Below are positions 14,414 to 35,745 of a stretch of DNA of 64,000 nucleotides, piece by piece; the first letter of the stretch is position 1; the number at the start of each line of letters is the position of its first letter. The stretch covers positions 7,564,001 through 7,628,000 of the forward strand of contig NZ_CP109427.1 in the NCBI RefSeq assembly GCF_036250695.1, read 5' to 3'. The stretch comes from Streptomyces sp. NBC_01497. GTDB lineage: Bacteria > Actinomycetota > Actinomycetes > Streptomycetales > Streptomycetaceae. The notes below the pieces were generated by a model. That model did no database searches and was not told the origin of the DNA. It worked only from the letters and a program-made list of their open reading frames with translations. The position numbers and the translations under genes were made by a program.

Positions 14414-14429
14414 GTTCATTACAGTGAAC
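14414..14429. promoter_or_regulatory. 16-bp palindromic operator, site 1 of first XRE-cupin gene
   Basis: GTTCATTACAGTGAAC; its reverse complement matches GTTC-RCT-N-TA-NN-GAAC exactly. It is the centre of a larger inverted repeat ACGTTCA / TGAACGT. Copies occur at 15183, 34936 and 35730, with imperfect ones at 14437 and 35696. Confidence 0.75.
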
Positions 14430-14436
14430 GTGGAAT

Positions 14437-14452
14437 GTGCGTTATAGCGAAC
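14437..14452. promoter_or_regulatory. Second, imperfect operator of first XRE-cupin gene
   Basis: GTGCGTTATAGCGAAC: reversed, it matches the 16-bp consensus with one mismatch in the outer arm. It lies 23 bases centre to centre from site 1 and ends 18 bases before the GTG start, so binding here should block expression of the regulator itself. Confidence 0.6.
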
Positions 14453-14470
14453 GCTCAGGGGGTGTGACCG

Positions 14471-15064
14471 GTGGGTTCCGAGCCGCACGAAGGGTCCGTC
14501 AGGGATCTGCTCGCCGCCAATCTGAAGGCGGCCAGAGCCCGCAGGCAAGTGTCGCTCTCGGAGGTCGCGCGCCTCTCCGGTATCAGCAAGGCGACCCTCT
14601 CGCAGCTGGAGTCCGGCACCGGCAACCCCACCATCGAGACGGTGTTCAGCCTCTCCCGCGCGCTCGGTGAACCCCTCTCCGGCCTGCTGGAGCCGCCCGC
14701 GCCCGGCGGCATGACGGTCATCCGCGCGGCCGACGTCGCGCCCCTGGTCGGCGAGGGCGTCGACCTGCGCCCCTACGGCCGTGTCGAAAGCGCCGGGTTG
14801 ATCTGCGAACTCTACGACCAGCAGGTCAGAGCGGGTGCGCGGCAGGAGTCCCCGGGGCATGCCGGGACCGAGCACACCGTCGTGCAGTCGGGGCTCCTGC
14901 GGGTCGAAGTGGACGAGGTGCGGGTGGAACTCGGCGCCGGGGACTATCTCTCCTTCGACGCTGTCACGCCGCACGTGTACACCGCGCCCGAAGGACCCGT
15001 ACGGTCGGTGCTGCTCATCAACTACCGTGCGGACGGCCGGGGCCCGGCCGAGGCACCGCACTGA
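14471..15064 (+). CDS. XRE family regulator with C-terminal cupin domain (paralogue 1)
   Basis: A 197-residue two-domain regulator. Residues 10-70 form an XRE helix-turn-helix (VSLSEVARLSGISKATLSQLE); residues about 85-190 form a small-molecule-binding cupin with PGHAGTEHTVVQSG and LGAGDYLSFDAVTPH. It starts at GTG 14471. It is very similar along its whole length to the protein encoded at 35072-35668; the helix-turn-helix and cupin signature stretches are nearly identical. Both have the same 16-bp palindrome upstream, so each probably controls itself and cross-talk is likely. It precedes the Xaa-Pro aminopeptidase gene, whose promoter bears the same operator. The likely ligand is proline, hydroxyproline or a derivative, by context only. 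Confidence 0.88.
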   Translation: MGSEPHEGSVRDLLAANLKAARARRQVSLSEVARLSGISKATLSQLESGTGNPTIETVFSLSRALGEPLSGLLEPPAPGGMTVIRAADVAPLVGEGVDLRPYGRVESAGLICELYDQQVRAGARQESPGHAGTEHTVVQSGLLRVEVDEVRVELGAGDYLSFDAVTPHVYTAPEGPVRSVLLINYRADGRGPAEAPH

Positions 15065-15093
15065 CCCGCGCCCCGGGAGCCGCCGGGGCGGGT
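15064..15093 (+). terminator. Terminator-like hairpin after first XRE-cupin gene
   Basis: An 11-bp stem with a two-base bulge (ACCCGC..CCCCGG with CCGGGGCGGGT) starts at the stop codon. No T tract. It separates the regulator from the promoter at 15148. Confidence 0.45.
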
Positions 15094-15147
15094 GACCGGT
15101 CGCTGACGTGCGAGGTTACGGCGGGCGAACTCCGCGTGGAAAGAGCA

Positions 15148-15176
15148 TTGACACCCCCTGGGTGGTGGCCTACGTT
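15148..15176 (+). promoter_or_regulatory. Promoter of Xaa-Pro aminopeptidase gene
   Basis: TTGACA (15148-15153), 17 bases, TACGTT (15171-15176): a near-consensus vegetative promoter. The operator at 15183 begins six bases after the -10 box, over the expected transcription start. Confidence 0.75.
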
Positions 15177-15182
15177 CTGGGT

Positions 15183-15198
15183 GTTCGCTCTATGGAAC
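15183..15198. promoter_or_regulatory. 16-bp operator over the start of the Xaa-Pro aminopeptidase transcript
   Basis: GTTCGCTCTATGGAAC matches the GTTC-RCT-N-TA-NN-GAAC consensus exactly. Its place immediately after the -10 box predicts repression by an XRE-cupin regulator. Confidence 0.78.
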
Positions 15199-15299
15199 AA
15201 AGCCAGTTCGGTTCCATGTACGAGAACGCGTCCGGGGGAGAACTGATCGTCCGCCACGGCAGCCCCCACAGGATCACTGCACCGAAGGGCGGATCCGGC

Positions 15300-16715: not shown

Positions 16716-17030
16716 CACCGGACGGGCCGCCGCGCGAAGGGGGCGGCCCGCCGAAGCCGTGACCGGCGGGGCGCCACCCGGCCCGCCCGGCCCGCGGCCG
16801 TCCCCACCGCACGGACCGCACCGCAGGACCCGTCAGCGTCCCACCGCACGACCCGCGAGCACCGCACCGTCGCGGGCCCCCCATACCGTCCAGTCCGTAT
16901 GTACCGGCACCCGAATCCGCAACCCGGCCCCTACCGCCCCGTCCCGCCTCGCTCCGGCTCAGGCCCAGGATCGCGCCACAGCCGTGGGCCCCGGCTCATC
17001 CCCTGCCCACGCGCAACCCATCGAGGACTC
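16716..17030. other. Intergenic region before the second peptide transporter
   Basis: This 315-base gap should contain the promoter of the seven-gene transporter and peptidase run. It holds the hairpin at 16723 and an imperfect dyad ATACCG..CCGTAT near 16883-16900 that could be an operator. I found no copy of the 16-bp XRE-cupin palindrome and no clear -35/-10 pair. Confidence 0.5.
16723..16750 (+). terminator. Hairpin after Xaa-Pro aminopeptidase gene
   Basis: A 9-bp perfect stem CGGGCCGCC / GGCGGCCCG with a ten-base loop begins eight bases after the stop codon. No T tract. Confidence 0.5.
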
Positions 17031-18575
17031 ATGCGTCCACGCACCTTCGCCGCGGGAGCCACCGCGGCCGCGGCAGTCCTGCTGCTCTCCTCCTGCTCCA
17101 CGCCCGGCGGTGGCACCACCGCCGGCGCCGGTTCCAACACGCTCGTCGTCTCCACCCCGACGGAACCCGACAGCCTGGACCCGACGCTCGCCAACACCTT
17201 CGCCGCGCGCCTGGTGTTCACGAGCTTCTGCGAGAAGCTCTACGACGTCGACTCGCACCTCAAGGTCGTCCCGCAGCTGGCGGCCTCCCTGCCCGTCATG
17301 TCCAACGGCGGGAAGACCATGGACATTCCGCTGCGCCAGGGCATCAAGTTCAACGACGGCACACCACTCGACGCGTCCGCCGTGAAGACGACACTCGACC
17401 GCGACCTGACGATGAAGGCGTCGGCGCGCGTCAACGAGCTGAACGCCGTCTCCAAGGTCGAGGTGAAGGACCCGCACACCGTACGGCTCGTCCTCAAGCA
17501 CCCCTCGGCCCCGCTGCTCTCCCAGCTCGCGGACCGATCCGGCCTCGTCATGTCGCCCACCGCGCTCAAGAGGCTCGGGGACGACTTCGGTACCGCGCCG
17601 GTGTGCGTGGGCCCCTTCTCGTTCAAGAGCCGCGTCTCCGGCAACGAGATCTCCTTCGTCAAGTCGCAGGACTACTACGACCGCAGCAAGGTGAAACTCA
17701 AGGGGATCGTCTACAAGTTCATCACCAACTCCAGTGTGGCCACGGCCAACCTGGAGTCAGGTGACGTGCAGGCGGCGGAACACCTCGACCCGAGCGACGC
17801 GGTCAACCTGAAGAACGAGAAGGGGGACACGGTCCTCCACTCCGACACCATCGCGTACCAGTCGCTCTCCATCAACGTCCGCAAGGGTGCGAAGACCGCC
17901 CTCAGCCAGTCCCCGGACCTGCGCAAGGCGTTCGAGATGAGTATCAACCGGAGCGCCCTCAACCAGGCGGTGTGGAACGGGCAGATGGTGCCCGACTGCG
18001 GGCCGCTACCGGTGCAGAGCGCCCTGCACACCAAGGTGAATTGCACGCCCTTCGACCCGGACGCGGCCCGCGCCCTCGTCAAGAAGTCGGGTGTGAAGAC
18101 CCCGATACCGGTCGAGCTGATGGTGGCGACCGGTTCGGCCACCCAGCGCGAGGCGCAGGTCGTCCAGTCGATGGCCAACGACGTCGGGTTCAAGGTCAGC
18201 GTGCGCCCCATCGACCTGGTCTCGGGCCTCGACCTCGCGCGCAAGGGCCAGTTCGACACGTTCCTCGAAGGCTGGTCCGGCCGGGTCGACCCGGACGGTG
18301 ACACCAACGACATCATCACCACCGGCGGCGCGAACAACTTCTCGGGATCGAACGACAAGGTGGTCGACCGGCTGATCGCGCAGGCGGCGCAGACCACCGA
18401 CGGCAAGAAGCGCGCCGCCCTGTACGGCGCAGCGGTCAAGCGTGTCGGCGAACAGCGCCCCCTGCTGTACCTGTACCACGACCGCTGGTTCCTCGGCACG
18501 AGCGACAAGCTGCACGGTGTCGTCTACCCGCCGGACGGCATCCCCCGGTTCAAGAGCGCGTACTTGTCCCACTGA
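17031..18575 (+). CDS. Peptide ABC transporter substrate-binding lipoprotein (second system)
   Basis: A 514-residue family 5 solute-binding lipoprotein. It has an Arg-rich start, a hydrophobic stretch and the lipobox LSSC (Cys near residue 22), then a mature domain with IKFNDGTPLDASAVK. ATG 17031 follows GAGG at five bases and gives a standard lipoprotein signal. It is the first gene of a run of seven (binding protein, two permeases, two ATPases, gamma-glutamyltransferase-like enzyme, proline-iminopeptidase-like enzyme) with gaps of 33 bases or less. The company of proline-specific peptidases suggests a preference for proline-containing peptides, which needs direct testing. Confidence 0.9.
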   Translation: MRPRTFAAGATAAAAVLLLSSCSTPGGGTTAGAGSNTLVVSTPTEPDSLDPTLANTFAARLVFTSFCEKLYDVDSHLKVVPQLAASLPVMSNGGKTMDIPLRQGIKFNDGTPLDASAVKTTLDRDLTMKASARVNELNAVSKVEVKDPHTVRLVLKHPSAPLLSQLADRSGLVMSPTALKRLGDDFGTAPVCVGPFSFKSRVSGNEISFVKSQDYYDRSKVKLKGIVYKFITNSSVATANLESGDVQAAEHLDPSDAVNLKNEKGDTVLHSDTIAYQSLSINVRKGAKTALSQSPDLRKAFEMSINRSALNQAVWNGQMVPDCGPLPVQSALHTKVNCTPFDPDAARALVKKSGVKTPIPVELMVATGSATQREAQVVQSMANDVGFKVSVRPIDLVSGLDLARKGQFDTFLEGWSGRVDPDGDTNDIITTGGANNFSGSNDKVVDRLIAQAAQTTDGKKRAALYGAAVKRVGEQRPLLYLYHDRWFLGTSDKLHGVVYPPDGIPRFKSAYLSH

Positions 18576-18608
18576 CCTGCCTTCATCCCAGGAAGATCCG
18601 CATGTCTC

Positions 18609-19562
18609 ATGATTGAGTTCATACTCCGTCGCACAGGCGCTGCCGTGGTCACCCTCTTCCTCGCCAGCATCGCGGTGTTCCTCGGCGTACGGGCCCTGCC
18701 CGGCGACCCGGCCACCGTGCTGGCGGGCGAGAGCCCCACCCCGCAGGCCATCGCCGCGATCCGCAAGCAGTTCGGCCTCGACCAGCCTCTGCCCCTGCAG
18801 TACCTCCACTACATGGGCCAGGCGCTGCAGGGCAACCTCGGCCTGTCCACGCAGGACAAGGCGCCCGTCACCCAGGTGCTCGGCGAACGCCTGCCGGTCA
18901 CCCTCGAACTGACCTTCCTCGCCATCGTCGTCGGCGTGCTGGTCGGGGTGCTCGCCGGTATCCTCTCGGCGGTCCGCCGGGGCACGGCCGTCGACTACGC
19001 GGCCAACGGATTCGGCCTGTTCGGCCTGTCCGTGCCGCACTTCTGGCTGGGCCTCCTCGGCATCGTCGTCTTCTCCGTGCACTGGCACGTCCTGCCCGCG
19101 TCGGGGTTCGTGGGACTCGCCGACGATCCCGTCGGCAACCTCGAACGCATGGTGATGCCGGTCCTCGTGCTCGGGCTCGGGCTCTCCGCCGTCGTCATGC
19201 GCCAGACCCGCTCGTCGCTGCTCAGCCAGCTCAACGCGGAGTACGTGCGCACCGCCCGGTCCAAGGGCCTCTCCCGGGCCCAGCAGATCCGGCACGCGCT
19301 GCGCAACAGCCTCACCACCGTCACCACGGTCGTCGGCCTCCAGCTCGCCGGCCTCATCAGCGGCGCCGTCATCACCGAGCAGATCTTCGTCATCCCGGGC
19401 TTCGGCAAGCTCATCGTCGACGGGGTCTCCTCCCGCAACTACCCCGTCATCCAAGGCGCCGTACTGGTCACCGTCGCGGGCTACGTGGTGATCAACCTCC
19501 TGGTGGACATCACCTACGCCTACCTCGATCCCCGCCTGCGGATGGCCGGAGGCTCCCAGTGA
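18609..19562 (+). CDS. ABC transporter permease, DppB type (second system)
   Basis: A 317-residue membrane protein with the DppB-type N-terminus (MIEFILRRTGAAVVTLFLASIAVF then ALPGDPA) and an EAA loop at AEYVRTARSKGLSRAQQIRHALRNS. ATG 18609 follows AGGAAG; an earlier ATG at 18602 is out of frame and stops after four codons. Its end overlaps the next GTG. Confidence 0.92.
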   Translation: MIEFILRRTGAAVVTLFLASIAVFLGVRALPGDPATVLAGESPTPQAIAAIRKQFGLDQPLPLQYLHYMGQALQGNLGLSTQDKAPVTQVLGERLPVTLELTFLAIVVGVLVGVLAGILSAVRRGTAVDYAANGFGLFGLSVPHFWLGLLGIVVFSVHWHVLPASGFVGLADDPVGNLERMVMPVLVLGLGLSAVVMRQTRSSLLSQLNAEYVRTARSKGLSRAQQIRHALRNSLTTVTTVVGLQLAGLISGAVITEQIFVIPGFGKLIVDGVSSRNYPVIQGAVLVTVAGYVVINLLVDITYAYLDPRLRMAGGSQ

Positions 19563-20461
19563 ACGAGACAGCGATCGACACCACGGACCCCGCCGCCGCC
19601 GGCGCGGACACCGAGGACATACCTCCGCAGGTCTCCTGGCGGCGGACCGTGCGCAGACTGCTGCGCCGCAGGATGGCCGTGATCGGCGCGGTCATGGTCA
19701 TCGTCTTCCTCGGCGTGGCCCTCATCGGGCCGCTGGTCGCGGGCAGTTCGACGAAGCTCGGGCTGACGGACATCCTCGCGAGCCCCTCCGGCGCGCACTG
19801 GCTCGGCAGCGACGACCTCGGCCGTGACGTGCTCGCCCGCATCTGCAACGGCGCCCGTGTCTCCCTGCTGGCCGGTGTGGTGTCCTCCGCGCTCGCCATG
19901 GCCGTCGGTGTGCCGCTGGGCCTTGCCGCCGGCTACTTCAGGGGCTGGACCGACTCGGTGCTCATGCGCGTCACCGACGTCGTGCTGTCGTTCCCGTACC
20001 TGATCTTCGCGGTCGGCATGGCGGCCATCCTCGGCCCGTCCCTGCGGAACGTCATCATCGCCCTCGCGGTCGCCGAGGTGCCGTCCGTCATCCGCGTCGT
20101 GCGCGGTGAGACGCTCGTACTGCGGCAGCAGGACTTCGTGCAGGCCGCCGTCGCCGACGGCGCCCGGGACCTCGCCATCATGTGGCGGTCCATCCTGCCG
20201 AACATGACGAACACCCTCATCGTCAAGGCGACCGTCGCGATCCCGGCCGGCATCCTCGGCGAGGCGGCGCTCAGCTTCCTCGGCCTCGGCGTCCAGCCGC
20301 CGCAGGCGTCCTGGGGCGTCATGCTGACGAGCGCGCAGCAGTTCCTCGCGCAGGACCCGCTGCTCGCCGTCTTCCCGGGCGTCGCGATCGCCCTGACCAC
20401 GCTCGGCTTCAACCTCCTCGGTGACGGCCTGCGCGACGTGCTCGACCCCAGGGAGCTGTGA
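19559..20461 (+). CDS. ABC transporter permease, DppC type (second system)
   Basis: A 300-residue permease. A cytoplasmic lead of about 35 residues precedes the first membrane helix; the extracellular loop has LGSDDLGRDVLARI, the DppC hallmark, and the EAA loop is QDFVQAAVADGARDLAIMW. GTG 19559 overlaps the previous stop by four bases, and its own stop overlaps the ATG of the ATPase gene. Confidence 0.92.
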   Translation: MNETAIDTTDPAAAGADTEDIPPQVSWRRTVRRLLRRRMAVIGAVMVIVFLGVALIGPLVAGSSTKLGLTDILASPSGAHWLGSDDLGRDVLARICNGARVSLLAGVVSSALAMAVGVPLGLAAGYFRGWTDSVLMRVTDVVLSFPYLIFAVGMAAILGPSLRNVIIALAVAEVPSVIRVVRGETLVLRQQDFVQAAVADGARDLAIMWRSILPNMTNTLIVKATVAIPAGILGEAALSFLGLGVQPPQASWGVMLTSAQQFLAQDPLLAVFPGVAIALTTLGFNLLGDGLRDVLDPREL

Positions 20462-21444
20462 TGCCACTCCTCGAAGTGCGGGACCTGCGGGTCCAGTACC
20501 GGACCGAGGACGGTCCGGTGTACGCGGCGAAGGACGTGTCGTTCTCGCTGGAGCGCGGCGAGATCCTCGCCCTCGTCGGTGAGTCCGGGTGCGGCAAGAC
20601 CGCCACCGCCATGGCCATCCCGCGCCTCCTCGACAACACCAACGCCACCATCGGCGGATCGGTCGTCCTCGACGGCACCGACCTGACGGCCCTGTCCGAG
20701 AAGCGGATGCAGGACATCCGCGGCAAGGACATCTCCGTCGTCTTCCAGGAGCCGATGACCTCCCTCAACCCCGCCTACACGGTGGGCAAGCAGATCGGTG
20801 AGGTCATCAGGCGCCACACCGGCCTGAACCGGGCCCAGGTGCGGGCACGGGTCGTGGAACTGCTGGAACTCGTCGGCATTCCCGACGCGGCACAGCGGGC
20901 GAGCGCCTACCCGCACGAGCTGTCCGGCGGCATGCGGCAGCGGGTGATGATCGCGACGGCCGTCGCCTGCGACCCCAAGGTCCTCATCGCGGACGAGCCG
21001 ACGACGGCGCTCGACGTCACCATCCAGGCGGCCGTGCTCGACATCATCAAGAGGCTCCGCGACGAACTCGGCACCGCCGTCGTCCTGATCACCCACGACC
21101 TGGGGGTGGTCGCGGAGGTCGCCGACCACGTCGTCGTCATGTACTCGGGACGCCATGTCGAGCACTCGCCCACCGCCGCCGTCTTCGCCGGCCCTCAGCA
21201 CCCCTACACGGTGGGCCTGATGGAAGCGCTGCCCTCCCGCGCGGCCCGCACCCCCGGCCGCCGCAGGCTCACCGAGATCCCCGGCATGGTGCCACCGCCC
21301 ACGACCGACCCGGACGCCTGCCAGTTCGCGCCCCGGTGCGTCCGCGCCACCGCGGACTGCACCGCGAAGCGGCCGGCCCTCGCCCGTGTCGGGGAAGACC
21401 ACCTGGTCGCCTGCTACCACCCGGGCCCTGGAGAGACCGCATGA
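20461..21444 (+). CDS. ABC transporter ATP-binding protein, DppD type
   Basis: A 327-residue ATPase with Walker [10 protein letters not shown], signature LSGGMRQRV, Walker [13 protein letters not shown] and the oligopeptide-class C-terminus (CQFAPRC). ATG 20461 has GGGAG five bases upstream; GTG 20458 is one codon earlier and possible. It overlaps both neighbours, so the transporter subunits are translated together. Confidence 0.92.
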
Positions 21445-22508
21445 ACGACACAGCACACCGCGCGGACGCCGCGCAGGAGGGACCGGTCCTCGACGTCAGG
21501 GGCCTGGTCAAGCACTACGCGGGCCGCTCGCGCGCAGCCCGCAGGAACGGGCCCATCCGCGCCGTCGACGGCGTCGACCTGCGCATCGGGCAGGGCGAAG
21601 TCCTCGGCCTGGTGGGGGAGTCCGGCAGCGGCAAGTCGACCGTCGGCAAGTGCGTCTCGCGGCTCACCGACCCCACGGCCGGCCGGATCGAACTCCTCGG
21701 GCGCGACATCTCCACCATCAACCGGCGCGAGATGCGGCCCCTGCGCCGCGACGTCCACGTCGTCTTCCAGGACGCGTACTCGTCCCTCGACCCCCGGATG
21801 AAGATCGGCGACATCGTCGGGGGGCCGCTGCGCCAGCACGGTGAGGGCGACGCGGCGCAGCGCCGCCGGCGCGTCTCCGAGATGCTGGAACGCGTCGGAT
21901 TCCGGGCTCACATGGCGGCCCGTTTCCCGCACGAACTCTCAGGCGGCCAGCGCCAGCGCGTCGCGCTGGCCCGCGCGCTCGTCATGAACCCCCGGCTCGT
22001 CGTCGCCGACGAGCCGGTCTCCGCGCTGGACGTGTCCGTGCAGGCGTCCATCCTCAACCTGCTGCTCGACCTCCAGGCCGACCTGGGTTTCTCGTGCCTG
22101 TTCATCACGCACGACCTGTCCGTCGTGGAGTTCATCAGCGACCGCATCGCCGTCATGTACCTCGGCAGGATCGTCGAGACGGCCACCCGCGAGGAACTCT
22201 TCGCCCACCCCCAGCACCCGTACACCCAGGCGCTCCTGTCGGCGGCCCCGGTCCCGGAGCCGGGTGGCACGAGGACGCGTGAGCGTGTCGTGCTCAGCGG
22301 TGACCTGCCCAGCCAGTCCAAGCGCGTCCCCGGCTGCCCCTTCCATCCCCGCTGCCCCGTCGCGGTGGACCGCTGCCGCACCGAGGTGCCCCCGCTGGCG
22401 GGCGTCACGGTGCCCGATCACCTCGTCTCCTGCCATCTGGTGGACGCGGCCACCGGCGGGCCCGACATCTCCCAGGGAAGGAACGGCATTGTTCACCACA
22501 CGTCCTGA
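21441..22508 (+). CDS. ABC transporter ATP-binding protein, DppF type
   Basis: A 355-residue ATPase with Walker A GESGSGKST, signature LSGGQRQRVALARAL, Walker B LVVADEPVSALD and a C-terminal GCPFHPRCP segment. Its ATG overlaps the stop of the previous gene. Its last 20 bases are shared with the start of the gamma-glutamyltransferase-like gene. Confidence 0.92.
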   Translation: MNDTAHRADAAQEGPVLDVRGLVKHYAGRSRAARRNGPIRAVDGVDLRIGQGEVLGLVGESGSGKSTVGKCVSRLTDPTAGRIELLGRDISTINRREMRPLRRDVHVVFQDAYSSLDPRMKIGDIVGGPLRQHGEGDAAQRRRRVSEMLERVGFRAHMAARFPHELSGGQRQRVALARALVMNPRLVVADEPVSALDVSVQASILNLLLDLQADLGFSCLFITHDLSVVEFISDRIAVMYLGRIVETATREELFAHPQHPYTQALLSAAPVPEPGGTRTRERVVLSGDLPSQSKRVPGCPFHPRCPVAVDRCRTEVPPLAGVTVPDHLVSCHLVDAATGGPDISQGRNGIVHHTS

Positions 22509-24264: not shown

Positions 24265-24268
24265 CACC

Positions 24269-25576
24269 ATGATCACAGCCGAGTACACACTGCCGGGCCT
24301 GCACGTCCGGGACCACCGCGTCGAGGTCCCGCTGGACTGGGCGGACCCCGAAGGGGCCACTCTCCACGTCTTCGCCAGGGAACTGGTCGATCCCGAGCGC
24401 AGAAGGGACGACCTGCCGTTCCTCGTCTACCTGCAGGGCGGCCCCGGCGGCAAGTCGCCGCGGCCGCTGACCAGGAGCGGCTGGATCGGCGAGGCCCTCG
24501 CCACCCACCGGGTGGTCCTGCTCGACCAGCGGGGCACCGGCCGCAGCACCCCCGTCGACGGGAGGGTGATGGCCGCGCTCGGCACGGCCGAGGCGGGCGC
24601 CGCGTACCTCTCGCACTTCCTCGCGGACTCGATCGTCGCGGACGCCGAGCACCTGCGGAAGACGGTCTTCGGCGGCCGGCCCTGGACCACGCTCGGCCAG
24701 AGTTACGGCGGCTTCCTGACCTTGTGCTACCTGTCGAGGGCGCCCGAGGGGCTGCACGCCTGCCTGGTGACCGGCGGCCTCGCGTCGGTGACGCCGGACG
24801 CGACCGACGTGTACCGGCACACGTATCCGCGGGTCGAGGCGAAGAACCGGATCTACCGTGAGCGCTACCCGCACGACGTCGACGTGCTGGGGCGGGTGGC
24901 GGACCGGGTCGCCGCGGGCGACGTGAGACTTCCGGACGGCGACGTCCTGACCGTTCGCCGGCTGCAGACGCTCGGCCTGGACTTCGGCATGAAGCCCGGC
25001 TTCGAGCGGGTCCACTGGCTGGTGGACGAGGCGTTCGCGGATGGTCCCGGGGACGCAGAACGGCTGACGGACACCTTCCTCGCGGGGGTCAGGGAGCGCA
25101 CGGCCTTCGACACCAACCCGCTGTTCGCCGCGCTCCAGGAGTCGGTCTACGCGAGCGGGTCGAACGGGCCCACCGCGTGGGCGGCCGACCGGGAGCGCGC
25201 CGACCGGCCGCAGTTCCGCGAGGACGCGAGGCCGCTGCTGCTGACCGGCGAGATGATGTACCCCTGGATGTTCGAGGAGATCAGGGCGCTGCGCCCGTTC
25301 GGTCCCGCGGTGGAACTGCTCGCCGCGCGCGAGCAGTGGCCCGACTTGTACGACCTGAAGCAACTCGCGGCGAATGATGTCCCGTTGGCGGCGGCGATCT
25401 ACTTCGACGACATGTATGTCGACTCCGCTCTGCAGCGGGAGACCGTCGCGCGGGTCGGCAACGCGCACGCCTGGGTCACCAACGAGTACGAGCACGACGG
25501 CCTGCACGAGGGCGACCACGTCTTCACGCACCTGACGGGCATGCTCAAGGACAGGGGCGGCTTCACCGGCCGCTGA
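24269..25576 (+). CDS. Proline iminopeptidase-like alpha/beta hydrolase (S33)
   Basis: A 435-residue serine hydrolase resembling prolyl aminopeptidase, which removes N-terminal proline from peptides. Visible landmarks are LQGGPGGKS near residues 55-63 (oxyanion region), VVLLDQRGTGRST near 82-94 and the nucleophile elbow GQSYGG with Ser145; a His in EHDGLHEGDHV near the C-terminus is the likely catalytic base. ATG 24269 lies four bases after the GGT stop. As the last gene of the transporter run it probably finishes breakdown of imported proline peptides. Activity on other small peptides or esters is possible. Confidence 0.85.
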   Translation: MITAEYTLPGLHVRDHRVEVPLDWADPEGATLHVFARELVDPERRRDDLPFLVYLQGGPGGKSPRPLTRSGWIGEALATHRVVLLDQRGTGRSTPVDGRVMAALGTAEAGAAYLSHFLADSIVADAEHLRKTVFGGRPWTTLGQSYGGFLTLCYLSRAPEGLHACLVTGGLASVTPDATDVYRHTYPRVEAKNRIYRERYPHDVDVLGRVADRVAAGDVRLPDGDVLTVRRLQTLGLDFGMKPGFERVHWLVDEAFADGPGDAERLTDTFLAGVRERTAFDTNPLFAALQESVYASGSNGPTAWAADRERADRPQFREDARPLLLTGEMMYPWMFEEIRALRPFGPAVELLAAREQWPDLYDLKQLAANDVPLAAAIYFDDMYVDSALQRETVARVGNAHAWVTNEYEHDGLHEGDHVFTHLTGMLKDRGGFTGR

Positions 25577-29386: not shown

Positions 29387-29408
29387 GTTCGTCCCCTCCC
29401 GGGTGCCT

Positions 29409-29454: not shown

Positions 29455-29477
29455 GGCAGCTTGCCGCGACGCGACGG

Positions 29478-29668: not shown

Positions 29669-30670
29669 CTACAGCACGAACCCGTGCGGGAAGGGGTCCT
29701 GGGGATCGAGCAGATAGGTGGCGGTGCCGGTGATCCACGCGCGCCCCGAGAACTCGGGTACGACGGCGGGGAGCCCCGCGACCTCCGTCTCCGCCAGCAG
29801 CCGTCCCGTGAACCGGGTCCCGATGAACGACTCGTTGACGAACTCGGCCCCGAGCGCCAGCTCGCCGCGCGCGTGCAGCTGGGCCATCCGCGCCGACGTA
29901 CCCGTGCCGCACGGCGAACGGTCGAACCAGCCCGGCTGGATGGCCATGGCGTTGCGCGAGTGCTTCGCGTCCGATCCCGGGGCGAGGAACTGCACGTGCT
30001 TGCAGCCCCGGATCGCCGGATCGGCCGGATGCACGGGCGCGTTGTGCGCGTTGACCGCGTCGGAGACGGCGAGACCCGCCGCGAGGATCTCGTCCTTGCG
30101 CGCCCGGTCGAAGGGCAGGCCGATCGACGCGAGGTCCACGATGGCGTAGAAGTTCCCGCCGTAGGCCATGTCGTAGCGCACCTCGCCGAGGCCTGGGACG
30201 TCCACCGCGGCGTCGAGTTCCAGCGCGAACGCGTCGACGTTGCGCAGGGTCACCCGCTCCGCGACCCCGTCCCGGACCGCGACACGCGCCTCGACGAGCC
30301 CGGCCGGCGTGTCGAGCCGTACGACGGTCTCCGGCTCGCTCACCGCCACCATGCCGGTCTCCACCAGGACCGTCGCGACCCCGATCGTGCCGTGGCCGCA
30401 CATCGGCAGGAAGCCGCTCACCTCGACGTACAGGACACCCCAGTCGGCGTCCTCGCGCAGCGGCGGCTGGAGGATGGCGCCGCTCATCGCCGAGTGCCCG
30501 CGCGGCTCGTCCACCAGGAAGCGCCGCAGCTCGTCCAGATGCTCGATGGCGTACCGGCGCCGTTCGGCCATGGTGGTCCCCGGGATCGGCGGCACCCCGC
30601 CCGTGACGACCCGGGTCGGCATGCCCTCGGTGTGCGAGTCGACGGCGCTGAGGGCGCGGACGCTGCGCAT
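29669..30670 (-). CDS. 4-hydroxyproline 2-epimerase (proline racemase family)
   Basis: A 333-residue proline racemase family enzyme. Both active-site cysteines are present, Cys91 in MCGHGTIG and Cys254 in SPCGTGTSA; two cysteines mark racemases and epimerases, whereas trans-3-hydroxyproline dehydratases have Thr at the second. In hydroxyproline catabolism it converts trans-4-hydroxy-L-proline to cis-4-hydroxy-D-proline. The operon context supports hydroxyproline over proline. ATG 30670 overlaps the stop of the DapA-family gene (ATGA); the frame stays open upstream inside that gene but is not coding. It is the last gene of the operon, the one acting first in the pathway. Confidence 0.9.
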   Translation of the reverse strand: MRSVRALSAVDSHTEGMPTRVVTGGVPPIPGTTMAERRRYAIEHLDELRRFLVDEPRGHSAMSGAILQPPLREDADWGVLYVEVSGFLPMCGHGTIGVATVLVETGMVAVSEPETVVRLDTPAGLVEARVAVRDGVAERVTLRNVDAFALELDAAVDVPGLGEVRYDMAYGGNFYAIVDLASIGLPFDRARKDEILAAGLAVSDAVNAHNAPVHPADPAIRGCKHVQFLAPGSDAKHSRNAMAIQPGWFDRSPCGTGTSARMAQLHARGELALGAEFVNESFIGTRFTGRLLAETEVAGLPAVVPEFSGRAWITGTATYLLDPQDPFPHGFVL

Positions 30671-31614
30671 CAGACCCGCTGCCCGTCCATGCCGAGCGCG
30701 GCCAGCGCGTCGATGGCGCGCTTCATGTCGGCGGTGACCTGCTCGCGGAAGGCGGGCACCAGCGGCCCGCGCGGCGGGCGGCAGGGGCCGCCGTACCGGC
30801 CCACCATCTCCATCCCGAGCTTGATGGCCTGCACGAACTCGGTACGCGAGTCCCAGCGGAACGCGGCTACGAGGGGCTCGTACAGCGCCCGCGCCTCCTC
30901 CAGCTTGCCGGCCCGCGCGAGCTGGAACAGCCGGGCGGACTCGGCGGGGAAGACGTTCGGGAAGCCGGCGAACCACCCGGTGGCGCCCATCAGCAGGCTC
31001 TCCAGCACGACGTCGTCGGCGCCGCTGATGACATCGAGCCCGGGCGCCTGCTCCTTGATCTCCAGGACGCGCCGCACGTCGCCGGAGAACTCCTTCACGG
31101 CGACCACGTTGTCGATCGCGGCGATCTCCGCGAGCAGGGCGGGCGTGAGGTCGACCTTCGTGTCGAAGGGGTTGTTGTAGACCATCACGGGCAGACCGAC
31201 GGCGGCGACGGCCTCGAAGTGGGCGATGACCTCACCGGGGTTGGCGCGGTACATGGTCGGCGGCAGGCACAGCACACCGTCGGCGCCGTCCTCGGCTGCG
31301 GCCTCTGCCCAGTGGGCGGCCAGGTGCGAACCGACCCCGTGCACACCGACGACGACCTTGCCGCGCCCGGCGACGGCCGCGATCGCCGTACGGGCGACGG
31401 AGCGGCGCTCGTCGTCCGAGAGCGACGAGTACTCGCCGAGCGACCCGTTCGGGCCGACGCCGTCGCAGCCGTTGTCGACGACCCAGGCGCAGTGCTCGGC
31501 GTAGCGGTCGAGGTCGACGGCGAGGCCCGCCGGTGCGGAGGGGTCCTCCCGGTAGGGCAGGGCGGTGGCGACGACGACGCCGCCCAGGGCGCCGTCCAAG
31601 GATGTGGTGCTCAT
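30670..31614 (-). CDS. DapA-family lyase, probable 1-pyrroline-4-hydroxy-2-carboxylate deaminase
   Basis: A 314-residue class I aldolase-fold enzyme of the dihydrodipicolinate synthase family. The Schiff-base lysine is about residue 174 in VVAVKEFSGD, a conserved tyrosine is in VMVYNNPFDTK, and GSLGEYSSLS occupies the GTTGE position. In the hydroxyproline pathway this family deaminates the cyclic imine made by D-hydroxyproline dehydrogenase to alpha-ketoglutarate semialdehyde. ATG 31614 is preceded by AAGGAG at nine bases; ATG 31632 is in frame but has a poor site. It sits between oxidase and epimerase genes on the same strand, with a 300-base gap upstream. Confidence 0.85.
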   Translation of the reverse strand: MSTTSLDGALGGVVVATALPYREDPSAPAGLAVDLDRYAEHCAWVVDNGCDGVGPNGSLGEYSSLSDDERRSVARTAIAAVAGRGKVVVGVHGVGSHLAAHWAEAAAEDGADGVLCLPPTMYRANPGEVIAHFEAVAAVGLPVMVYNNPFDTKVDLTPALLAEIAAIDNVVAVKEFSGDVRRVLEIKEQAPGLDVISGADDVVLESLLMGATGWFAGFPNVFPAESARLFQLARAGKLEEARALYEPLVAAFRWDSRTEFVQAIKLGMEMVGRYGGPCRPPRGPLVPAFREQVTADMKRAIDALAALGMDGQRV

Positions 31615-31914
31615 GGGCTGGGGCTCCTTCATGACGAAGACTCGGTGGTGAGGGGGTGGGAGAGAACGGTGTCGGTGCCGGCGGCCACACCGGGGCGTGC
31701 CGGGACGGCCCGCTGGGGGGCGGGGGGCGGCGCCGGGGTGCGTACGCCCCCGTGCGGGGCCGTGCGCGGTGCGGCGGACGTGCGGTGCGGGCCAGTGGCA
31801 CGGGCGCGGCCGTTGTACGCCTGCGCCGGCATGCGCGCGGCCGCTGTACGCGTGCGGTGACACCGGCGCTGCCGCATCGTGCCGGGCTCGGGCGGGTGAT
31901 CCGGTGGGGGTCCT
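31615..31914. other. 300-base gap inside the hydroxyproline operon
   Basis: GC-rich spacer between the FAD oxidoreductase and the DapA-family gene. It contains an imperfect direct repeat, GCGGCCG-TTGTACGCCTGC and GCGGCCG-CTGTACGCGTGC, at about 31807 and 31839. No open frame looks real. The gap may hold an internal promoter, but none was identified. Confidence 0.5.
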
Positions 31915-33342
31915 TCACCCGTCGTACTCCCGTGCAGGGGCGGCCAGTTCGCCCAGGCGGACCGGTTCGGCCAGCGGCCTGCGGTGCGGTGCCGCGGCAT
32001 CCGCGTCCGGCGCGCCCAGACGCGCACGCAACTCCGCGACCGTCACCGCGCACATACGGCCCTGGCACGGCCCGAGGCCCGCCCGGGTACCGAGCTTCGC
32101 GACCCGGGCCTCCGTCGTCGCCGGGTCACCGGCCGCCGCGCGCACCGACGCGTAGTCGCTCTCCTCGCACCGGCACACCACGGTGTCGTCCCGCAGCCAG
32201 CCGGGCCATTCCCGGCCGATGGGGTGCGCGGCGGCGAGACGTCCCGCGAACGCCCGTCCCTGGTCCCGGCCGCGCCGCAGGGCGGTGAGCGGCCGGGCCG
32301 AGGGGGCGCCGCCTGCCGCGTGCCACCCCGCGACCGCGCCCTCGGCGCGCGATGCCGGGGCGCCCGCGATGCCGGTGACCTCGCCCGCCGCGTACACCCC
32401 GGGACTGCTGGTCAGCTGGTCGTCGTCCACCTGGACGAACACCGCGTCCGGGGTACCTCCGCGCACCGCGCAGCCCGCGGCGACCAGGAGTTCCAGACGC
32501 GGTGTGAAGCCGTGCCCGACGCAGACCGCGTCCACCGCGGTGACCCGCTCGCTGCCCGGTACGACCGACCAGTCGGCCCGCACCCGCGCGCTCACGATCT
32601 CCTCGACCCGCCCGTCGCCGCGCGCCTCGACCACCGCCCTGCCCAGCAGGTACGGCACGCGGGCCCGCGCCAGCGCGGCGGTGTACGAGACGAGTTCGCC
32701 GGTCTTGCCCGCCTGCGCCGCCAGCTCCCAGGGCCTGCGCAGCCAGCCGCGCGTCACCCGGGCGCCCCCGGCAGCCTCCAGCACCTCCGCCACCTGCGAC
32801 CCCGCCTCCAGCAGTGAGACCGCCACCGGCAGCAGGAAGGGGCCGGTGCCCGCCACCGCGACCCGCTCACCGACCGCGACCCGCTCGCCCTTCGCGAGGG
32901 CCTGAGCCGCTCCGGCGGTGAACACACCGGGCAACTCCCAGCCGGGGAAGGGCAGTACACGATCGTGTGCGCCCGGCGCCAGCACCAGTGCGTCGGGGGT
33001 GAGAACACCCCGACGGCCGGGAGAGCCCTCGCCCAGTACGTGCACGAGCGGCGCTCGCGCGGGGTCCTCCCGTTCGAGTGCCCACACCGACGTCCCTGCC
33101 AGCCAGGTACAGCGGTCGTGCGCGAGCACCCGGCGCACGCGCCGGTCGAACGCGGCCCAACCGTGGTGCAGTACCTCCGGATTGGCCGCCTCGTACGCGT
33201 CCGGCAGCATCCGGTGGTACTGGCCGCCCGGCCGCTCCGCGGAGTCGACCAGGGTCACCCGCGCACCTGCGGCCAGGGCCGCGTCGGCCGCCGCGAGGCC
33301 CGCGGGCCCCGCGCCCACGACCACCACATGACGGCGGCTCAC
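31915..33342 (-). CDS. FAD/NAD(P)-binding oxidoreductase, D-hydroxyproline dehydrogenase subunit
   Basis: A 475-residue flavoprotein of the type found as one subunit of heterotrimeric D-hydroxyproline dehydrogenases, opine oxidases and HcnB-like enzymes. It has the FAD motif VVVGAGPAGLAAA at the N-terminus, a second GTGPFLLP dinucleotide motif, and a C-terminal cysteine cluster (VCRCEE, about 30 residues, GPCQGRMC) like a BFD-type 2Fe-2S domain. GTG 33342 follows GGAGGAGG and overlaps the stop of the small 2Fe-2S gene, so the three subunit genes are coupled. It likely passes electrons from cis-4-hydroxy-D-proline oxidation to an acceptor. Confidence 0.88.
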   Translation of the reverse strand: MSRRHVVVVGAGPAGLAAADAALAAGARVTLVDSAERPGGQYHRMLPDAYEAANPEVLHHGWAAFDRRVRRVLAHDRCTWLAGTSVWALEREDPARAPLVHVLGEGSPGRRGVLTPDALVLAPGAHDRVLPFPGWELPGVFTAGAAQALAKGERVAVGERVAVAGTGPFLLPVAVSLLEAGSQVAEVLEAAGGARVTRGWLRRPWELAAQAGKTGELVSYTAALARARVPYLLGRAVVEARGDGRVEEIVSARVRADWSVVPGSERVTAVDAVCVGHGFTPRLELLVAAGCAVRGGTPDAVFVQVDDDQLTSSPGVYAAGEVTGIAGAPASRAEGAVAGWHAAGGAPSARPLTALRRGRDQGRAFAGRLAAAHPIGREWPGWLRDDTVVCRCEESDYASVRAAAGDPATTEARVAKLGTRAGLGPCQGRMCAVTVAELRARLGAPDADAAAPHRRPLAEPVRLGELAAPAREYDG

Positions 33343-33683
33343 GATGCCTCCTCCGGTCCCTGGCGGATGCCGTCCGCTTCCGGAGGCCGACGGTTCTGGG
33401 TGGAGACCGCGTCGCCGTCCGCGGCGCGCCGCCGGCAAGCCCGCACGTCCTGCTCGCCGTTGACGCTCACGAGGCAGTCGAAGCACACGCCGATCCCGCA
33501 GAACACACCGCGCCGCGCACCCGAGGGCCCGGTCCGCCAGGCGCGTCGCCCCGAGGCGAGCAGCAGCCCCGCGATCGTCTGGCCGGCGATGCCCGTGACG
33601 GCTTCGCCGTCGACCGTGACGGCGACCGGCCGCTCCGTACGGCGCACCGGGTCCGACCCGGCCGGTACGAGCCTCGGACTCAT
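33339..33683 (-). CDS. Small 2Fe-2S ferredoxin-like subunit
   Basis: A 114-residue protein with the plant-type 2Fe-2S pattern: Cys62, Cys67, Cys70 and Cys83 in FCGIGVCFDCLV...VRAC. Proteins of this size between two flavoprotein genes are the electron-transfer (gamma) subunits of D-hydroxyproline dehydrogenase and related amine oxidases. Its ATG overlaps the preceding stop by four bases and its own stop overlaps the next GTG. Confidence 0.88.
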   Translation of the reverse strand: MSPRLVPAGSDPVRRTERPVAVTVDGEAVTGIAGQTIAGLLLASGRRAWRTGPSGARRGVFCGIGVCFDCLVSVNGEQDVRACRRRAADGDAVSTQNRRPPEADGIRQGPEEAS

Positions 33684-34924
33684 GCTTCCTCCTCGTCGCG
33701 CCCCTCGGACGCTCCTGTCCCGGACGTGTCGTGCCCAGCGGCCGCCGCTTCGCCCGAGGCGGCGTGCGAGCCGCCCAGGACGGCGGGCCGGTCGACCCGG
33801 AACGGTGCCGCGTCGATCTCCGGCTCCTCGCCCGTCAGCAGCGCCCGCAGCAGCCGGGCGGTCCCCACCGACAGTCCGATGCCCGCGCCCTCGTGGCCGC
33901 CGGCGTGCCACAGCCCGGCGAGCCGGGGGTCGGCGCCGATCACCGGCAGGTGGTCCGGCACGTACGGGCGGAAACCGCCGTACGCGCGCATGACCGGCAC
34001 CCCCGCGAGCGAGGGGAAGAGTCGCAGTGCCTTGGCCGCGATCGCGGAGAGCACCTCGGGGCGTGTCCTGTCGTCGAAGCCCACCCGCCGGCGTGACGAG
34101 CCGAGCAGCACACTGCCGGCGAGCGTGGCCTCCACGACCGCCGACGTCTGCAGCTCCCCGTCGCCGCTGCCGACCGCGCCCACGTAGTCGGCGTCGTAGA
34201 CCTTGTGGAACACCGTCGGCGGCAGCGGGGTCGTCACCAGTACCTCGCCGCGCCGGGGCCGGATGTCGACCGGTGCGCCGAGGCGTGCGGCCAGCTCGCC
34301 GGACCAGGGGCCCGCCGCGTTGACGAACACGTCCGCCTCCAGCGAGCCGTGCGAGGTGCGCACGGCCGTGAGCCGGCCGCCGCGGACGACGGCGCCGAGC
34401 ACCTCGCGGCCGGTGCGCAGGGCCGCACCGGCCGCGAGGGCGTCCGAGAGGAGGGCCGTGGCCGCCCCGGCCGGCTGCACCTGGGCGTCCTGCGGGTAGG
34501 AGACGGCCGCCGTGTGGTCGCGGGTGACGTACGGTTCCGCGGCCCGCAGCGCGTCCGCGTCGAGTGCCTCGGCGCGCACGCCCGCCGCGCGCTGGGCATC
34601 GGCGAACGGTCGCAGGCCGGCGGCGCCCGCCTCGGTGGTGGCGACGACGATGCCACCCTTGGGCTGCCATTCGACCTGCGCGGCGCGGTCCCCGAGCTCG
34701 GCGAGGACCTCGGGCCACAGCCGCCTGGACCATTGCGCGAGCGCGAGTTCGGGTCCCGGCCCCTTGTCGGAGACCAGGATGTTCCCCTCGCCGTGGGACG
34801 TGGTCGCGGCGGCGGCGCCACCGCGGTCGACCACCAGCACGTCGAAACCCGCGAGGGCGAGTTCACGGGCGCAGGCCGAACCGACGATCCCGGCGCCCAG
34901 GATGACCACGCGCGTTCGGTCCAC
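33680..34924 (-). CDS. FAD-dependent amine oxidoreductase (DAO family), D-hydroxyproline dehydrogenase catalytic subunit
   Basis: A 414-residue D-amino-acid-oxidase-fold flavoprotein starting with VVILGAGIVGSACARELALAGFDVLVVDRG and ending with the conserved GHEGAGIGLSVGTARLL. With the next two genes it forms the three-part enzyme that oxidises cis-4-hydroxy-D-proline to the pyrroline. GTG 34924 has GAGGAGG close upstream and is the first codon of the operon; the transcript leader is short because the promoter and operator lie at 34936-34986. Sarcosine or D-proline oxidation are alternatives, less likely beside an epimerase and a DapA-family deaminase. Confidence 0.9.
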   Translation of the reverse strand: MDRTRVVILGAGIVGSACARELALAGFDVLVVDRGGAAAATTSHGEGNILVSDKGPGPELALAQWSRRLWPEVLAELGDRAAQVEWQPKGGIVVATTEAGAAGLRPFADAQRAAGVRAEALDADALRAAEPYVTRDHTAAVSYPQDAQVQPAGAATALLSDALAAGAALRTGREVLGAVVRGGRLTAVRTSHGSLEADVFVNAAGPWSGELAARLGAPVDIRPRRGEVLVTTPLPPTVFHKVYDADYVGAVGSGDGELQTSAVVEATLAGSVLLGSSRRRVGFDDRTRPEVLSAIAAKALRLFPSLAGVPVMRAYGGFRPYVPDHLPVIGADPRLAGLWHAGGHEGAGIGLSVGTARLLRALLTGEEPEIDAAPFRVDRPAVLGGSHAASGEAAAAGHDTSGTGASEGRDEEEA

Positions 34925-34935
34925 CCGTCCTCCTC

Positions 34936-34951
34936 GTTCTGTAAAGCGAAC
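34936..34951. promoter_or_regulatory. 16-bp operator of the hydroxyproline operon
   Basis: On the operon strand it reads GTTCGCTTTACAGAAC, an exact match to GTTC-RCT-N-TA-NN-GAAC. It begins six bases after the -10 box, the same spacing as at the Xaa-Pro aminopeptidase promoter. Confidence 0.78.
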
Positions 34952-34957
34952 GCCTTG

Positions 34958-34986
34958 AGATTAAGTCGCCCCGTGGGGGGTGTCAA
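34958..34986 (-). promoter_or_regulatory. Promoter of the hydroxyproline catabolic operon
   Basis: On the leftward strand TTGACA (34986-34981), 17 bases, TAATCT (34963-34958): close to the vegetative consensus. The operator covers the expected start of transcription. Confidence 0.8.
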
Positions 34987-35071
34987 CGGGCGCCCGGCCA
35001 CCCGCGTACGGACGCCGAGGCGAACGGGGGACCGCGCCCGCCGGGCGGGACCGGCGCGCTTCCCCCACGGC

Positions 35072-35668
35072 TCAGTGCGGGGCGTTCCCCGGCTCCTGCG
35101 GGTCACGCAGCCCCGAGCGGTAGTGGAGCAGGAGCACCGAACGGACCGGCCCGTCGGGCGCCGCGTAGCAGTGCGGCAGCGAGGCGTCGAACGACACGTA
35201 GTCGCCGGGTCCGAGCTCCACCCGGTGCCCGTCCACCTCGACCGCGAGGGTGCCGCTCTGCACCACCGTGTGCTCCGTGCCCGCGTGCCCCAGCGACGGC
35301 TGCCGGGAGTCGGCCCTGACCTGCTGGTCGTAGAGTTCCATGATCACGCCGCCGGTCTCGATCCGCTGGAGCGGCCGCAGGTCGACGCCCTCCCCGCTGA
35401 GGACGTCCGTCTCCGCCGCGCGCACCACCGTGACCGTGTCCACGTGGTGCGTGTCCAGCAGGTCGGAGATGGGCATCTCCAGAGCGCGGGAGAGGCTGAA
35501 GACGGTCTCGATCGTCGGGTTCCCGGTGGCCGACTCCAACTGGGAGAGCGTCGCCTTGCCGATCTTCGACAGGCGTGACAGCTCGGACAGCGACAGGCCG
35601 CGGCGCGTCCTCTCGCGTCTGAGGTTCGCGGCCAGCACGTCTCGTACCGCACTGTTGACCGGCTTCAC
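35072..35668 (-). CDS. XRE family regulator with C-terminal cupin domain (paralogue 2)
   Basis: A 198-residue protein with the same two-domain plan as the one at 14471: XRE helix-turn-helix (LSLSELSRLSKIGKATLSQLE) and a cupin (LGHAGTEHTVVQSG, LGPGDYVSFDASLPH). The two share long identical stretches, so they arose by duplication and probably read the same DNA site. GTG 35668 has GGAG at about eight bases. It lies 147 bases upstream of the hydroxyproline operon on the same strand, with two palindromes before it. It most likely represses both itself and the operon until a pathway compound binds the cupin. Confidence 0.9.
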   Translation of the reverse strand: MKPVNSAVRDVLAANLRRERTRRGLSLSELSRLSKIGKATLSQLESATGNPTIETVFSLSRALEMPISDLLDTHHVDTVTVVRAAETDVLSGEGVDLRPLQRIETGGVIMELYDQQVRADSRQPSLGHAGTEHTVVQSGTLAVEVDGHRVELGPGDYVSFDASLPHCYAAPDGPVRSVLLLHYRSGLRDPQEPGNAPH

Positions 35669-35695
35669 GCGGAACTCCTAGGGGCTGTCGGGCAC

Positions 35696-35711
35696 GTTCG
35701 CTTCAGCGTAC
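35696..35711. promoter_or_regulatory. Second, imperfect operator of paralogue 2
   Basis: GTTCGCTTCAGCGTAC: two mismatches to the 16-bp consensus. Lies 27 bases before the GTG start of the regulator, 34 bases centre to centre from the better site, mirroring the strong/weak pair at 14414 and 14437. Confidence 0.5.
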
Positions 35712-35729
35712 GGGCGGCGGGATCCATCC

Positions 35730-35745
35730 GTTCGACATAGTGAAC
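35730..35745. promoter_or_regulatory. 16-bp operator of paralogue 2
   Basis: Reads GTTCACTATGTCGAAC on the gene strand, one mismatch to GTTC-RCT-N-TA-NN-GAAC, with perfect GTTC/GAAC arms. Upstream of the second XRE-cupin regulator. Confidence 0.7.

What the first reader, a model, noticed from the sequence alone, without database searches (positions are those of the whole stretch)
14414..35745. One 16-bp palindrome links two XRE-cupin regulators, a prolyl peptidase gene and the hydroxyproline operon
Six copies of GTTC-RCT-N-TA-NN-GAAC lie only upstream of genes in this island. Read in one orientation they are: 14414 GTTCACTGTAATGAAC, 14437 GTTCGCTATAACGCAC, 15183 GTTCGCTCTATGGAAC, 34936 GTTCGCTTTACAGAAC, 35730 GTTCACTATGTCGAAC, 35696 GTTCGCTTCAGCGTAC. 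Three are exact, two have one mismatch and one has two. Both regulator genes carry a strong/weak pair. The regulators have nearly identical recognition helices. This defines a regulon motif that I do not know to have been described.
Basis: partly seen in the sequence, partly recalled or inferred. Interest (0 to 1): 0.85.

Follow-up and report, generated by a model that had tools for sequence, protein, structure and literature searches.

The report
Shared repressor site for hydroxyproline use
A short mirror-symmetric DNA site, conserved across many soil actinobacteria, appears to be the switch by which XRE-cupin repressor proteins turn hydroxyproline breakdown off, and in this Streptomyces a duplicated copy of the repressor seems to use the same switch on a peptidase and peptide-uptake operon.

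Summary
The six palindromes are real and all lie before two XRE-cupin genes, an aminopeptidase-P-like gene and the hydroxyproline (Hyp) operon. A matrix trained only on other genomes ranks exactly these six first in the window. GTTC-N8-GAAC precedes the first Hyp gene in 80 of 81 relatives' loci that hold that gene near an XRE-cupin gene (the 81st is an N gap) and is the commonest palindrome there without any prior motif. It mostly sits 6-7 bases after a -10-like box, where a repressor would block transcription. Of 30 Streptomyces Hyp promoters examined, 12 of 12 with an XRE-cupin in the genome carry it and 0 of 18 without do; 9 of those 18 carry the published HypR site. So this looks like a repressor-operator system standing in for HypR, with a duplicated regulator (A; three genomes) attached to a peptide-uptake operon. 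A tempting distant hit before an aldehyde dehydrogenase gene most likely belongs to a divergent IclR regulator and is rejected. Binding, ligand and cross-talk are untested. Known kind of regulator, apparently new site and role.

The parts
14414..14429 (.). Operator A1 (strong) before XRE-cupin A; GTTCATTACAGTGAAC; overlaps a candidate -10 (TACAGT), by eye
   Evidence: top matrix score in window, 26.4; same 16-mer in L051, GTTCAGTACAGTGAAC in L052
14437..14452 (.). Operator A2 (weak) before XRE-cupin A, 23 bp from A1
   Evidence: score 18.7; same sequence in L051, one-base variant in L052, spacing 32 and 23 bp there
14471..15064 (+). XRE-cupin regulator A (197 aa)
   Evidence: HTH_3 plus Cupin_2 above cut-off; 67% identical to B; clade of 3 rows
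15183..15198 (.). Operator before M24 peptidase gene; TTGACA-N17-TACGTT-N6-operator, by eye
   Evidence: identical 16-mer before M24 in L051 and before SBP in L052
15300..16715 (+). Aminopeptidase-P-like protein (AMP_N plus Peptidase_M24); start at 15300 chosen by eye
   Evidence: translated from 15291
16899..22508 (+). Peptide-type ABC transporter: SBP (SBP_bac_5), two permeases, two ATPases (ORF bounds)
   Evidence: no curated cut-off met among the families shown
22264..25576 (+). Gamma-glutamyltransferase family protein and alpha/beta hydrolase (ORF bounds; true start of the first is probably near 22510)
29669..30976 (-). Hydroxyproline epimerase / proline racemase family (ORF bounds)
   Evidence: Pro_racemase 1.6e-132; PRK13971 353.5 bits, below its cut-off 376
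30670..31863 (-). DHDPS-family protein, presumed pyrroline-4-hydroxy-2-carboxylate deaminase (ORF bounds)
   Evidence: PF00701
31915..33486 (-). Presumed D-Hyp dehydrogenase alpha subunit (Pyr_redox_2)
33339..33683 (-). Presumed 2Fe-2S gamma subunit, read in the sequence; no family search run on it
   Evidence: translation
33680..34924 (-). Presumed D-Hyp dehydrogenase beta subunit (DAO), first gene of the Hyp operon
   Evidence: PF01266
34936..34951 (.). Operator of the Hyp operon; TTGACA-N17-TAATCT-N6-operator, then the ribosome-binding site, by eye
   Evidence: 80 of 81 relatives' DAO promoters have GTTC-N8-GAAC
35072..35668 (-). XRE-cupin regulator B (198 aa)
   Evidence: HTH_3 plus Cupin_2 above cut-off
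35696..35711 (.). Weak operator before regulator B
   Evidence: score 14.8; identical sequence in L069 before its B-like gene
35730..35745 (.). Strong operator before regulator B
   Evidence: score 21.9; same 16-mer in L063, L070 and L090

Best explanation
The palindromes are operators of a small family of XRE-cupin repressors. A dimer of regulator B would bind CGTTC-N2-T-N2-A-N2-GAACG just downstream of the -10 box of the Hyp operon and cover the transcription start, keeping the operon off; a metabolite of the Hyp pathway sensed by the cupin domain would release it. B would also repress itself through a strong/weak operator pair. Regulator A is a duplicate of the Hyp regulator that kept the operator and now controls itself and the operon of an aminopeptidase-P-like enzyme and a peptide-type ABC transporter, presumably for Pro/Hyp-rich peptides. 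The system takes the place of the GntR repressor HypR known from S. coelicolor. Shown computationally: sites, conservation, promoter geometry, co-occurrence, close paralogy. Inferred: binding, repression, ligand, peptide substrate.
For: With no motif given, GTTC-N8-GAAC is the commonest gapped palindrome before the DAO gene (80 of 81) and before the regulator (36 of 93); its shuffle mean in the regulator set is 0.4 over 20 shuffles. Before the internal genes EPIM and PYR it is found in 0 of 63 and 0 of 69. In 1.52 Mb of relatives GTTCNNTNNANNGAAC occurs 105 times; the 11 other orderings of the half-site occur 0-3 times each. A -10-like box was found in 57 of 68 promoters, 6-7 bp before the site in 55 of these, with a -35-like box in 54 of 68 (permissive search, no shuffle control). 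A second site 22-23 bp on stands in 21 of 41 Streptomyces-group DAO promoters. Site follows regulator: 12 of 12 DAO promoters in genomes with an XRE-cupin hit, 0 of 18 in genomes without. A clade supported 100/96, in a 16-row set with B (99/85). XRE-cupin factors of P. aeruginosa are local inhibitors; palindromic motifs are given for several (PMC7901475, passages).
Against: No binding or expression data. Exact sites before the regulator's own gene: 35 of 50 in the Streptomyces group, but 1 of 30 distant and 0 of 13 Amycolatopsis, so autoregulation is not general. The A operon rests on three genomes. Only 2 of 19 M24 homologues in these loci have an exact site within 400 bp upstream. Eight of the 105 consensus sites had no named gene behind them; some follow regulators with no Hyp operon in the locus, so their targets are unknown. 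Two of six window sites score within the range of shuffled maxima. At one mismatch the consensus has 77 places in the own genome against 31 for the reversed control.
Confidence: 0.85

Rival explanations
1. The palindromes are bound by another regulator, for example an IclR-type protein, and the XRE-cupin genes are only neighbours or targets.
For: An IclR gene lies divergent to the aldehyde dehydrogenase gene, whose promoter carries a near-identical palindrome GTTCAGNATANCGAAC, so GTTC-N8-GAAC need not mean an XRE-cupin protein.
Against: That IclR gene is present in Streptomyces with and without the XRE-cupin, while the Hyp-promoter site was found only with it. In 11 genomes examined for both, the IclR gene and its palindrome are present but the Hyp promoter has no site at up to one mismatch.
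Confidence: 0.06
2. The XRE-cupin proteins bind these sites but activate, not repress.
For: No expression data exist to exclude it.
Against: The operator mostly lies 6-7 bp downstream of a -10-like box, a place typical of repressors; XRE-cupin proteins studied in P. aeruginosa are described as inhibitors (PMC7901475, passages).
Confidence: 0.06
3. The regulon extends to the last pathway enzyme, a presumed alpha-ketoglutarate-semialdehyde dehydrogenase at G000:C1:6392155-6393687, through the one-mismatch site at 6392080.
For: The site starts 75 bp before the gene and scores 18.9 with the matrix.
Against: It breaks the conserved T/A pair of the Hyp operator. It is present at up to one mismatch in 18 of 18 examined genomes that have the gene but no XRE-cupin hit, as well as in 27 of 28 close homologues from genomes with one. 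A divergent IclR gene lies beside it; L219, the one close homologue without the site, has no IclR match. The enzyme name is unproven: none of the 25 of 41 NCBIfam matches shown met its cut-off.
Confidence: 0.08

Closest known systems
XRE-cupin regulators of Pseudomonas (PsdR, PauR, ErfA and others; PMC7901475 and PMC10965056: passages seen)
   Same: HTH plus cupin; mostly local; palindromic sites; PsdR controls a peptidase gene and a dipeptide-binding protein through two sites around its own gene, much like regulator A here.
   Different: PsdR site is given as TTAAG-N5-CTTAA, not GTTC-N8-GAAC; no Hyp operon in the passages seen; here two close paralogues go with one site.
HypR (SCO6294), GntR/FadR repressor of the Hyp operon in S. 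coelicolor (PMC6608401: abstract, results parts 1-2 of 3 and one discussion section seen)
   Same: Represses the equivalent five-gene Hyp operon; reported motif CTNTGC(A/C)ATGTCAC.
   Different: Different protein family and site. The window has no HypR-like site before DAO, and the best HypR match in the own genome is 47%, the level of a second paralogue seen in most of the 17 genomes.
LhpR (AraC, P. aeruginosa) and HypR (GntR, S. meliloti), as described in PMC6608401 and PMC5343134 (passages)
   Same: Control of the same pathway.
   Different: Unrelated regulator families; LhpR is described as an activator.

Membership tests
XRE-cupin transcription factors | N-terminal XRE-type HTH and C-terminal cupin domain | tested here: met
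   HTH_3 and Cupin_2 above cut-off in A and B
XRE-cupin transcription factors | Palindromic site in the promoter of neighbouring genes | tested here: met
   that the protein binds it is not shown
XRE-cupin transcription factors | Inhibition of the neighbouring genes | not testable with these tools
   Only promoter geometry points to it
XRE-cupin transcription factors | Cupin domain senses a metabolite of the regulated pathway | not testable with these tools
   No ligand data
HypR (GntR/FadR) control of Hyp operon | TGCAATGTCAC-like site before the first gene | tested here: not met
   Best match 4 mismatches in own DAO promoter; none near DAO at 2 mismatches in window
HypR (GntR/FadR) control of Hyp operon | HypR orthologue in the genome | tested here: not met
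   Own best hit 47% identity, against 87-100% in three genomes with the gene beside the Hyp operon and 63-74% in nine others
Hyp catabolic operon | Epimerase, DHDPS-like deaminase, three-part D-Hyp dehydrogenase | tested here: met
   Pfam for four of five; 2Fe-2S subunit by eye only; activities untested

The most novel reading that the evidence does not exclude
A and B both read the same operators, so the peptide-uptake operon and the Hyp operon form one two-input circuit: both repressors must be released, each by its own ligand (a Pro/Hyp peptide and a Hyp metabolite), before either operon is fully on. The shared operator would be the trace of a duplication in which the regulator moved to a new operon while the DNA code stayed fixed. 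The second operator placed on the start codon of the first Hyp gene in about half of the Streptomyces-group loci would add a further block.
Probability: 0.3. Interest if true: 0.65.

Novelty: new member of a known kind. Interest (0 to 1): 0.48.

Why it matters
It gives a sequence-defined operator and a candidate repressor for hydroxyproline use in actinobacteria whose Hyp operon lacks the HypR site. It suggests that one pathway is held by two unrelated repressors within one genus, and it offers a case of a regulator duplicated and attached to a functionally linked operon while its DNA code stayed the same, so that cross-talk between paralogues can be measured directly.

Tried and rejected
1. 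Regulon reaching the aldehyde dehydrogenase gene at 6392080: looked decisive, rejected after controls. 18 of 18 examined genomes without an XRE-cupin hit that have the gene (19 such genomes were given, one had no match) carry the same palindrome, and a divergent IclR gene lies beside it.

2. Searches read the wrong end of loci matched on the minus strand, because loci from the genome search are not turned. Their numbers are not used; one search repeats them with the strand taken from tblastn. Searches mishandled three minus-strand regulator rows (L040, L045, L049); one search repeats the regulator count, again 36 of 93. One search gave 79 of 81 for DAO by local-match starts, with starts corrected, gives 80 of 81.

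3. HypR site in the window: none near the Hyp operon. M9 collagenase in the own genome: no PF01752 match (2 of 11 genomes had one). One-mismatch genome scan with the relatives' consensus: 77 places against 31 for the reversed control; the printed list is cut, so it was not used to claim or exclude further targets.

4. Not done: structure prediction, homologous-protein search, ligand-pocket analysis, shuffle control for the promoter boxes.

5. Dropped rows and redundancy: one search pooled 13 loci with the best 80 of 95. Some rows are identical regulators, probably the same species twice (L038/L094, L039/L078, L043/L059, L045/L116), so 80 of 81 are not 81 independent cases; reduces to 68 sites with distinct flanks, 37 distinct 16-mers, after leaving out L051, L052, L063 and L069. 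One search examined 30 DAO loci, the best-scoring matches of 119 genomes. One search scored at most 21 candidates per genome at E 1e-30, so a distant XRE-cupin may have been missed. Of the 18 genomes called without XRE-cupin, G073 has a DAO 74% identical to the window's, at a contig edge with only 131 bases upstream; it may really belong to the other group.

Full report
Setting. The window is 64 kb of a 9.08 Mb Streptomyces-type genome (G000, two contigs). XRE-cupin regulator A (14471-15064, +) is followed by an AMP_N/Peptidase_M24 protein (aminopeptidase P type), a five-gene peptide-type ABC transporter, a gamma-glutamyltransferase family protein and an alpha/beta hydrolase. On the minus strand, regulator B (35072-35668) is followed by the Hyp operon: DAO, a 2Fe-2S subunit seen by eye, Pyr_redox_2, a DHDPS-family protein and a proline racemase/Hyp epimerase family protein. 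This matches the order of SCO6289-SCO6293, whose epimerase gene is needed for growth on L-Hyp in S. coelicolor (PMC6608401, results parts seen).

The sites. They lie before A (two), the M24 gene (one), DAO (one) and B (two). The consensus learned from other genomes, GTTCNNTNNANNGAAC, has four exact places in the own genome, three of them in the island, against none for the reversed control; the fourth lies, by eye, inside a transporter-like reading frame. At one mismatch it has 77 places against 31 for the control, so only strong sites single out the island.

Independent test of the motif. A scan of one genome per species with the A/B alignment gave the best 80 of 95 loci, in Streptomyces, Kitasatospora, Streptacidiphilus, Amycolatopsis, other Pseudonocardiaceae, Kribbella and Rhodococcus. 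With 13 loci this makes 93. Counting every 4-base inverted repeat with a 2-15 base gap, with no motif given, GTTC-N8-GAAC is the commonest before the DAO gene (80 of 81; the other is an N run) and before the regulator (36 of 93); in the regulator set its mean over 20 shuffles is 0.4 and the highest count of any palindrome in a shuffle is 18. The regulator counts split as 35 of 50 in the Streptomyces group, 1 of 30 distant and 0 of 13 Amycolatopsis, so operon control looks general and autoregulation does not. Before internal operon genes the palindrome is absent (EPIM 0 of 63, PYR 0 of 69). In 1.52 Mb of the 80 loci the consensus occurs 105 times and the other eleven orderings of the half-site 0-3 times each; eight of the 105 had no named gene behind them. 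A matrix from 68 DAO sites, leaving out the window's genome and the A-type genomes, puts the six window sites first to sixth, the two weakest within the range of shuffled maxima.

Mechanism. In 57 of 68 DAO promoters a -10-like box (TANNNT, sought 4-11 bases upstream) precedes the operator, in 55 of them 6-7 bases before it; 54 of 68 also have a -35-like box at a spacer of 16-18 bases. This search was permissive and had no shuffle control. The window's DAO and M24 promoters have the same layout, TTGACA, 17 bases, a -10-like box, 6 bases, operator, read from the printed sequence. The operator would cover the start of transcription, which fits repression. In 21 of 41 Streptomyces-group loci a second site follows 22-23 bp downstream; by eye these second copies hold an ATG or GTG at the start of the DAO match. 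In the window the second DAO site is degenerate, by eye. The weak partners of the regulator pairs recur in sister genomes: before A as GTGCGTTATAGCGAAC in window and L051 and GTACGTTATAGCGAAC in L052, and before B as GTACGCTGAAGCGAAC in window and L069.

Replacement of HypR. In 150 Streptomyces genomes the DAO protein is found in 119 at E 1e-80 and an XRE-cupin of this type at E 1e-30 in 14. I examined the 30 best DAO loci. In the 12 whose genome has an XRE-cupin hit, 12 promoters have the XRE site at up to one mismatch; in the 18 without a hit, none has. One of the 18, G073, has too little sequence upstream to judge. Of the 18, 9 carry the HypR site at up to one mismatch and 9 carry neither at that level; of the 12, none carries the HypR site at that level. 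The own genome has no close HypR: best hit 47%, as for a second paralogue in most of the 17 genomes searched. Seven XRE-type genomes (G031, G047, G085, G088, G103, G105, G138) keep a 64-74% HypR homologue away from the Hyp operon; in G103 it lies about 1.5 kb from an M9 collagenase match.

Duplication. A and B are 67% identical, the next own-genome match 31%. In a tree of 95 rows, rooted at the midpoint for drawing only, A forms a clade with L051 and L052 (100/96), inside a 16-row set with B (99/85). Two of those genomes, Streptomyces sp. 8L and 150FB, also hold a B-like copy (L063, L069). In 150FB no M24 match was found in the locus, and the identical operator stands before the peptide-binding protein gene. 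Identity between A and B is 39 of 54 in the HTH, 17 of 21 over helices 2-3 as I delimited them, and 52 of 69 in the cupin, so neither domain has diverged strikingly. Whether A and B share sites or ligands is open.

A false lead. The own genome has a one-mismatch site 75 bp before an aldehyde dehydrogenase gene that could be the last Hyp-pathway enzyme. The same palindrome stands before its homologue in 18 of 18 examined genomes that have the gene but no XRE-cupin hit, and in 27 of 28 close homologues (67% or more) from genomes with one. An IclR-family gene is found beside it in 46 of 48 loci at 80% identity or more. The two without are L219, which has no IclR match and no site, and L180, which has a 45% partial match and no site. 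I therefore assign that palindrome to the IclR protein. It shows that GTTC-N8-GAAC alone does not name the regulator.

Literature. Seven searches of the held open-access library showed no paper on an XRE-cupin regulator of Hyp use in actinobacteria, judged from titles and abstract starts; four of the seven had more than 12 hits and all but searches were listed only in part. PMC12565409 clusters 223 XRE motifs by computation; I saw its first part of six and passages, not its motif table, and this palindrome could be among them. Subscription papers are not covered.

Noticed in passing
L162 4081-4096 and KGSADH-like loci L163-L179, L193-L218, L220-L221: A palindrome GTTCAGNATANCGAAC or close variant lies between a divergent IclR gene and an aldehyde dehydrogenase gene in 46 of 48 Streptomyces loci examined: a separate, probably IclR, regulon with nearly the same half-sites.
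   Followed up: yes
L076 7781-9886 and 9966-10608: In Streptomyces iconiensis a second XRE-cupin gene, placed beside the A clade with weak support (95/53), lies directly after an M9 collagenase gene, with matrix hits before and after the regulator.
   Followed up: partly
G103:C1:7731502-7734441 (L237): In a genome whose Hyp operon has the XRE site, a 64% HypR homologue lies about 1.5 kb from an M9 collagenase match: the two regulators may have split the collagen pathway.
   Followed up: no
L222 7409-9806: In a genome with HypR beside the Hyp operon, an aminopeptidase-P-like gene lies next to hypR, so this peptidase type accompanies Hyp use under both regulators.
   Followed up: no
L181 (Streptacidiphilus jiangxiensis): An exact HypR-type site GTGACATTGCA lies 38 bp before the aldehyde dehydrogenase gene there, and the IclR-type palindrome is absent.
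   Followed up: no
window 25715-27670: FAD-dependent aromatic hydroxylase-type monooxygenase (FAD_binding_3, Rng_hyd_C) between the peptide operon and the Hyp operon; role unknown.
   Followed up: no
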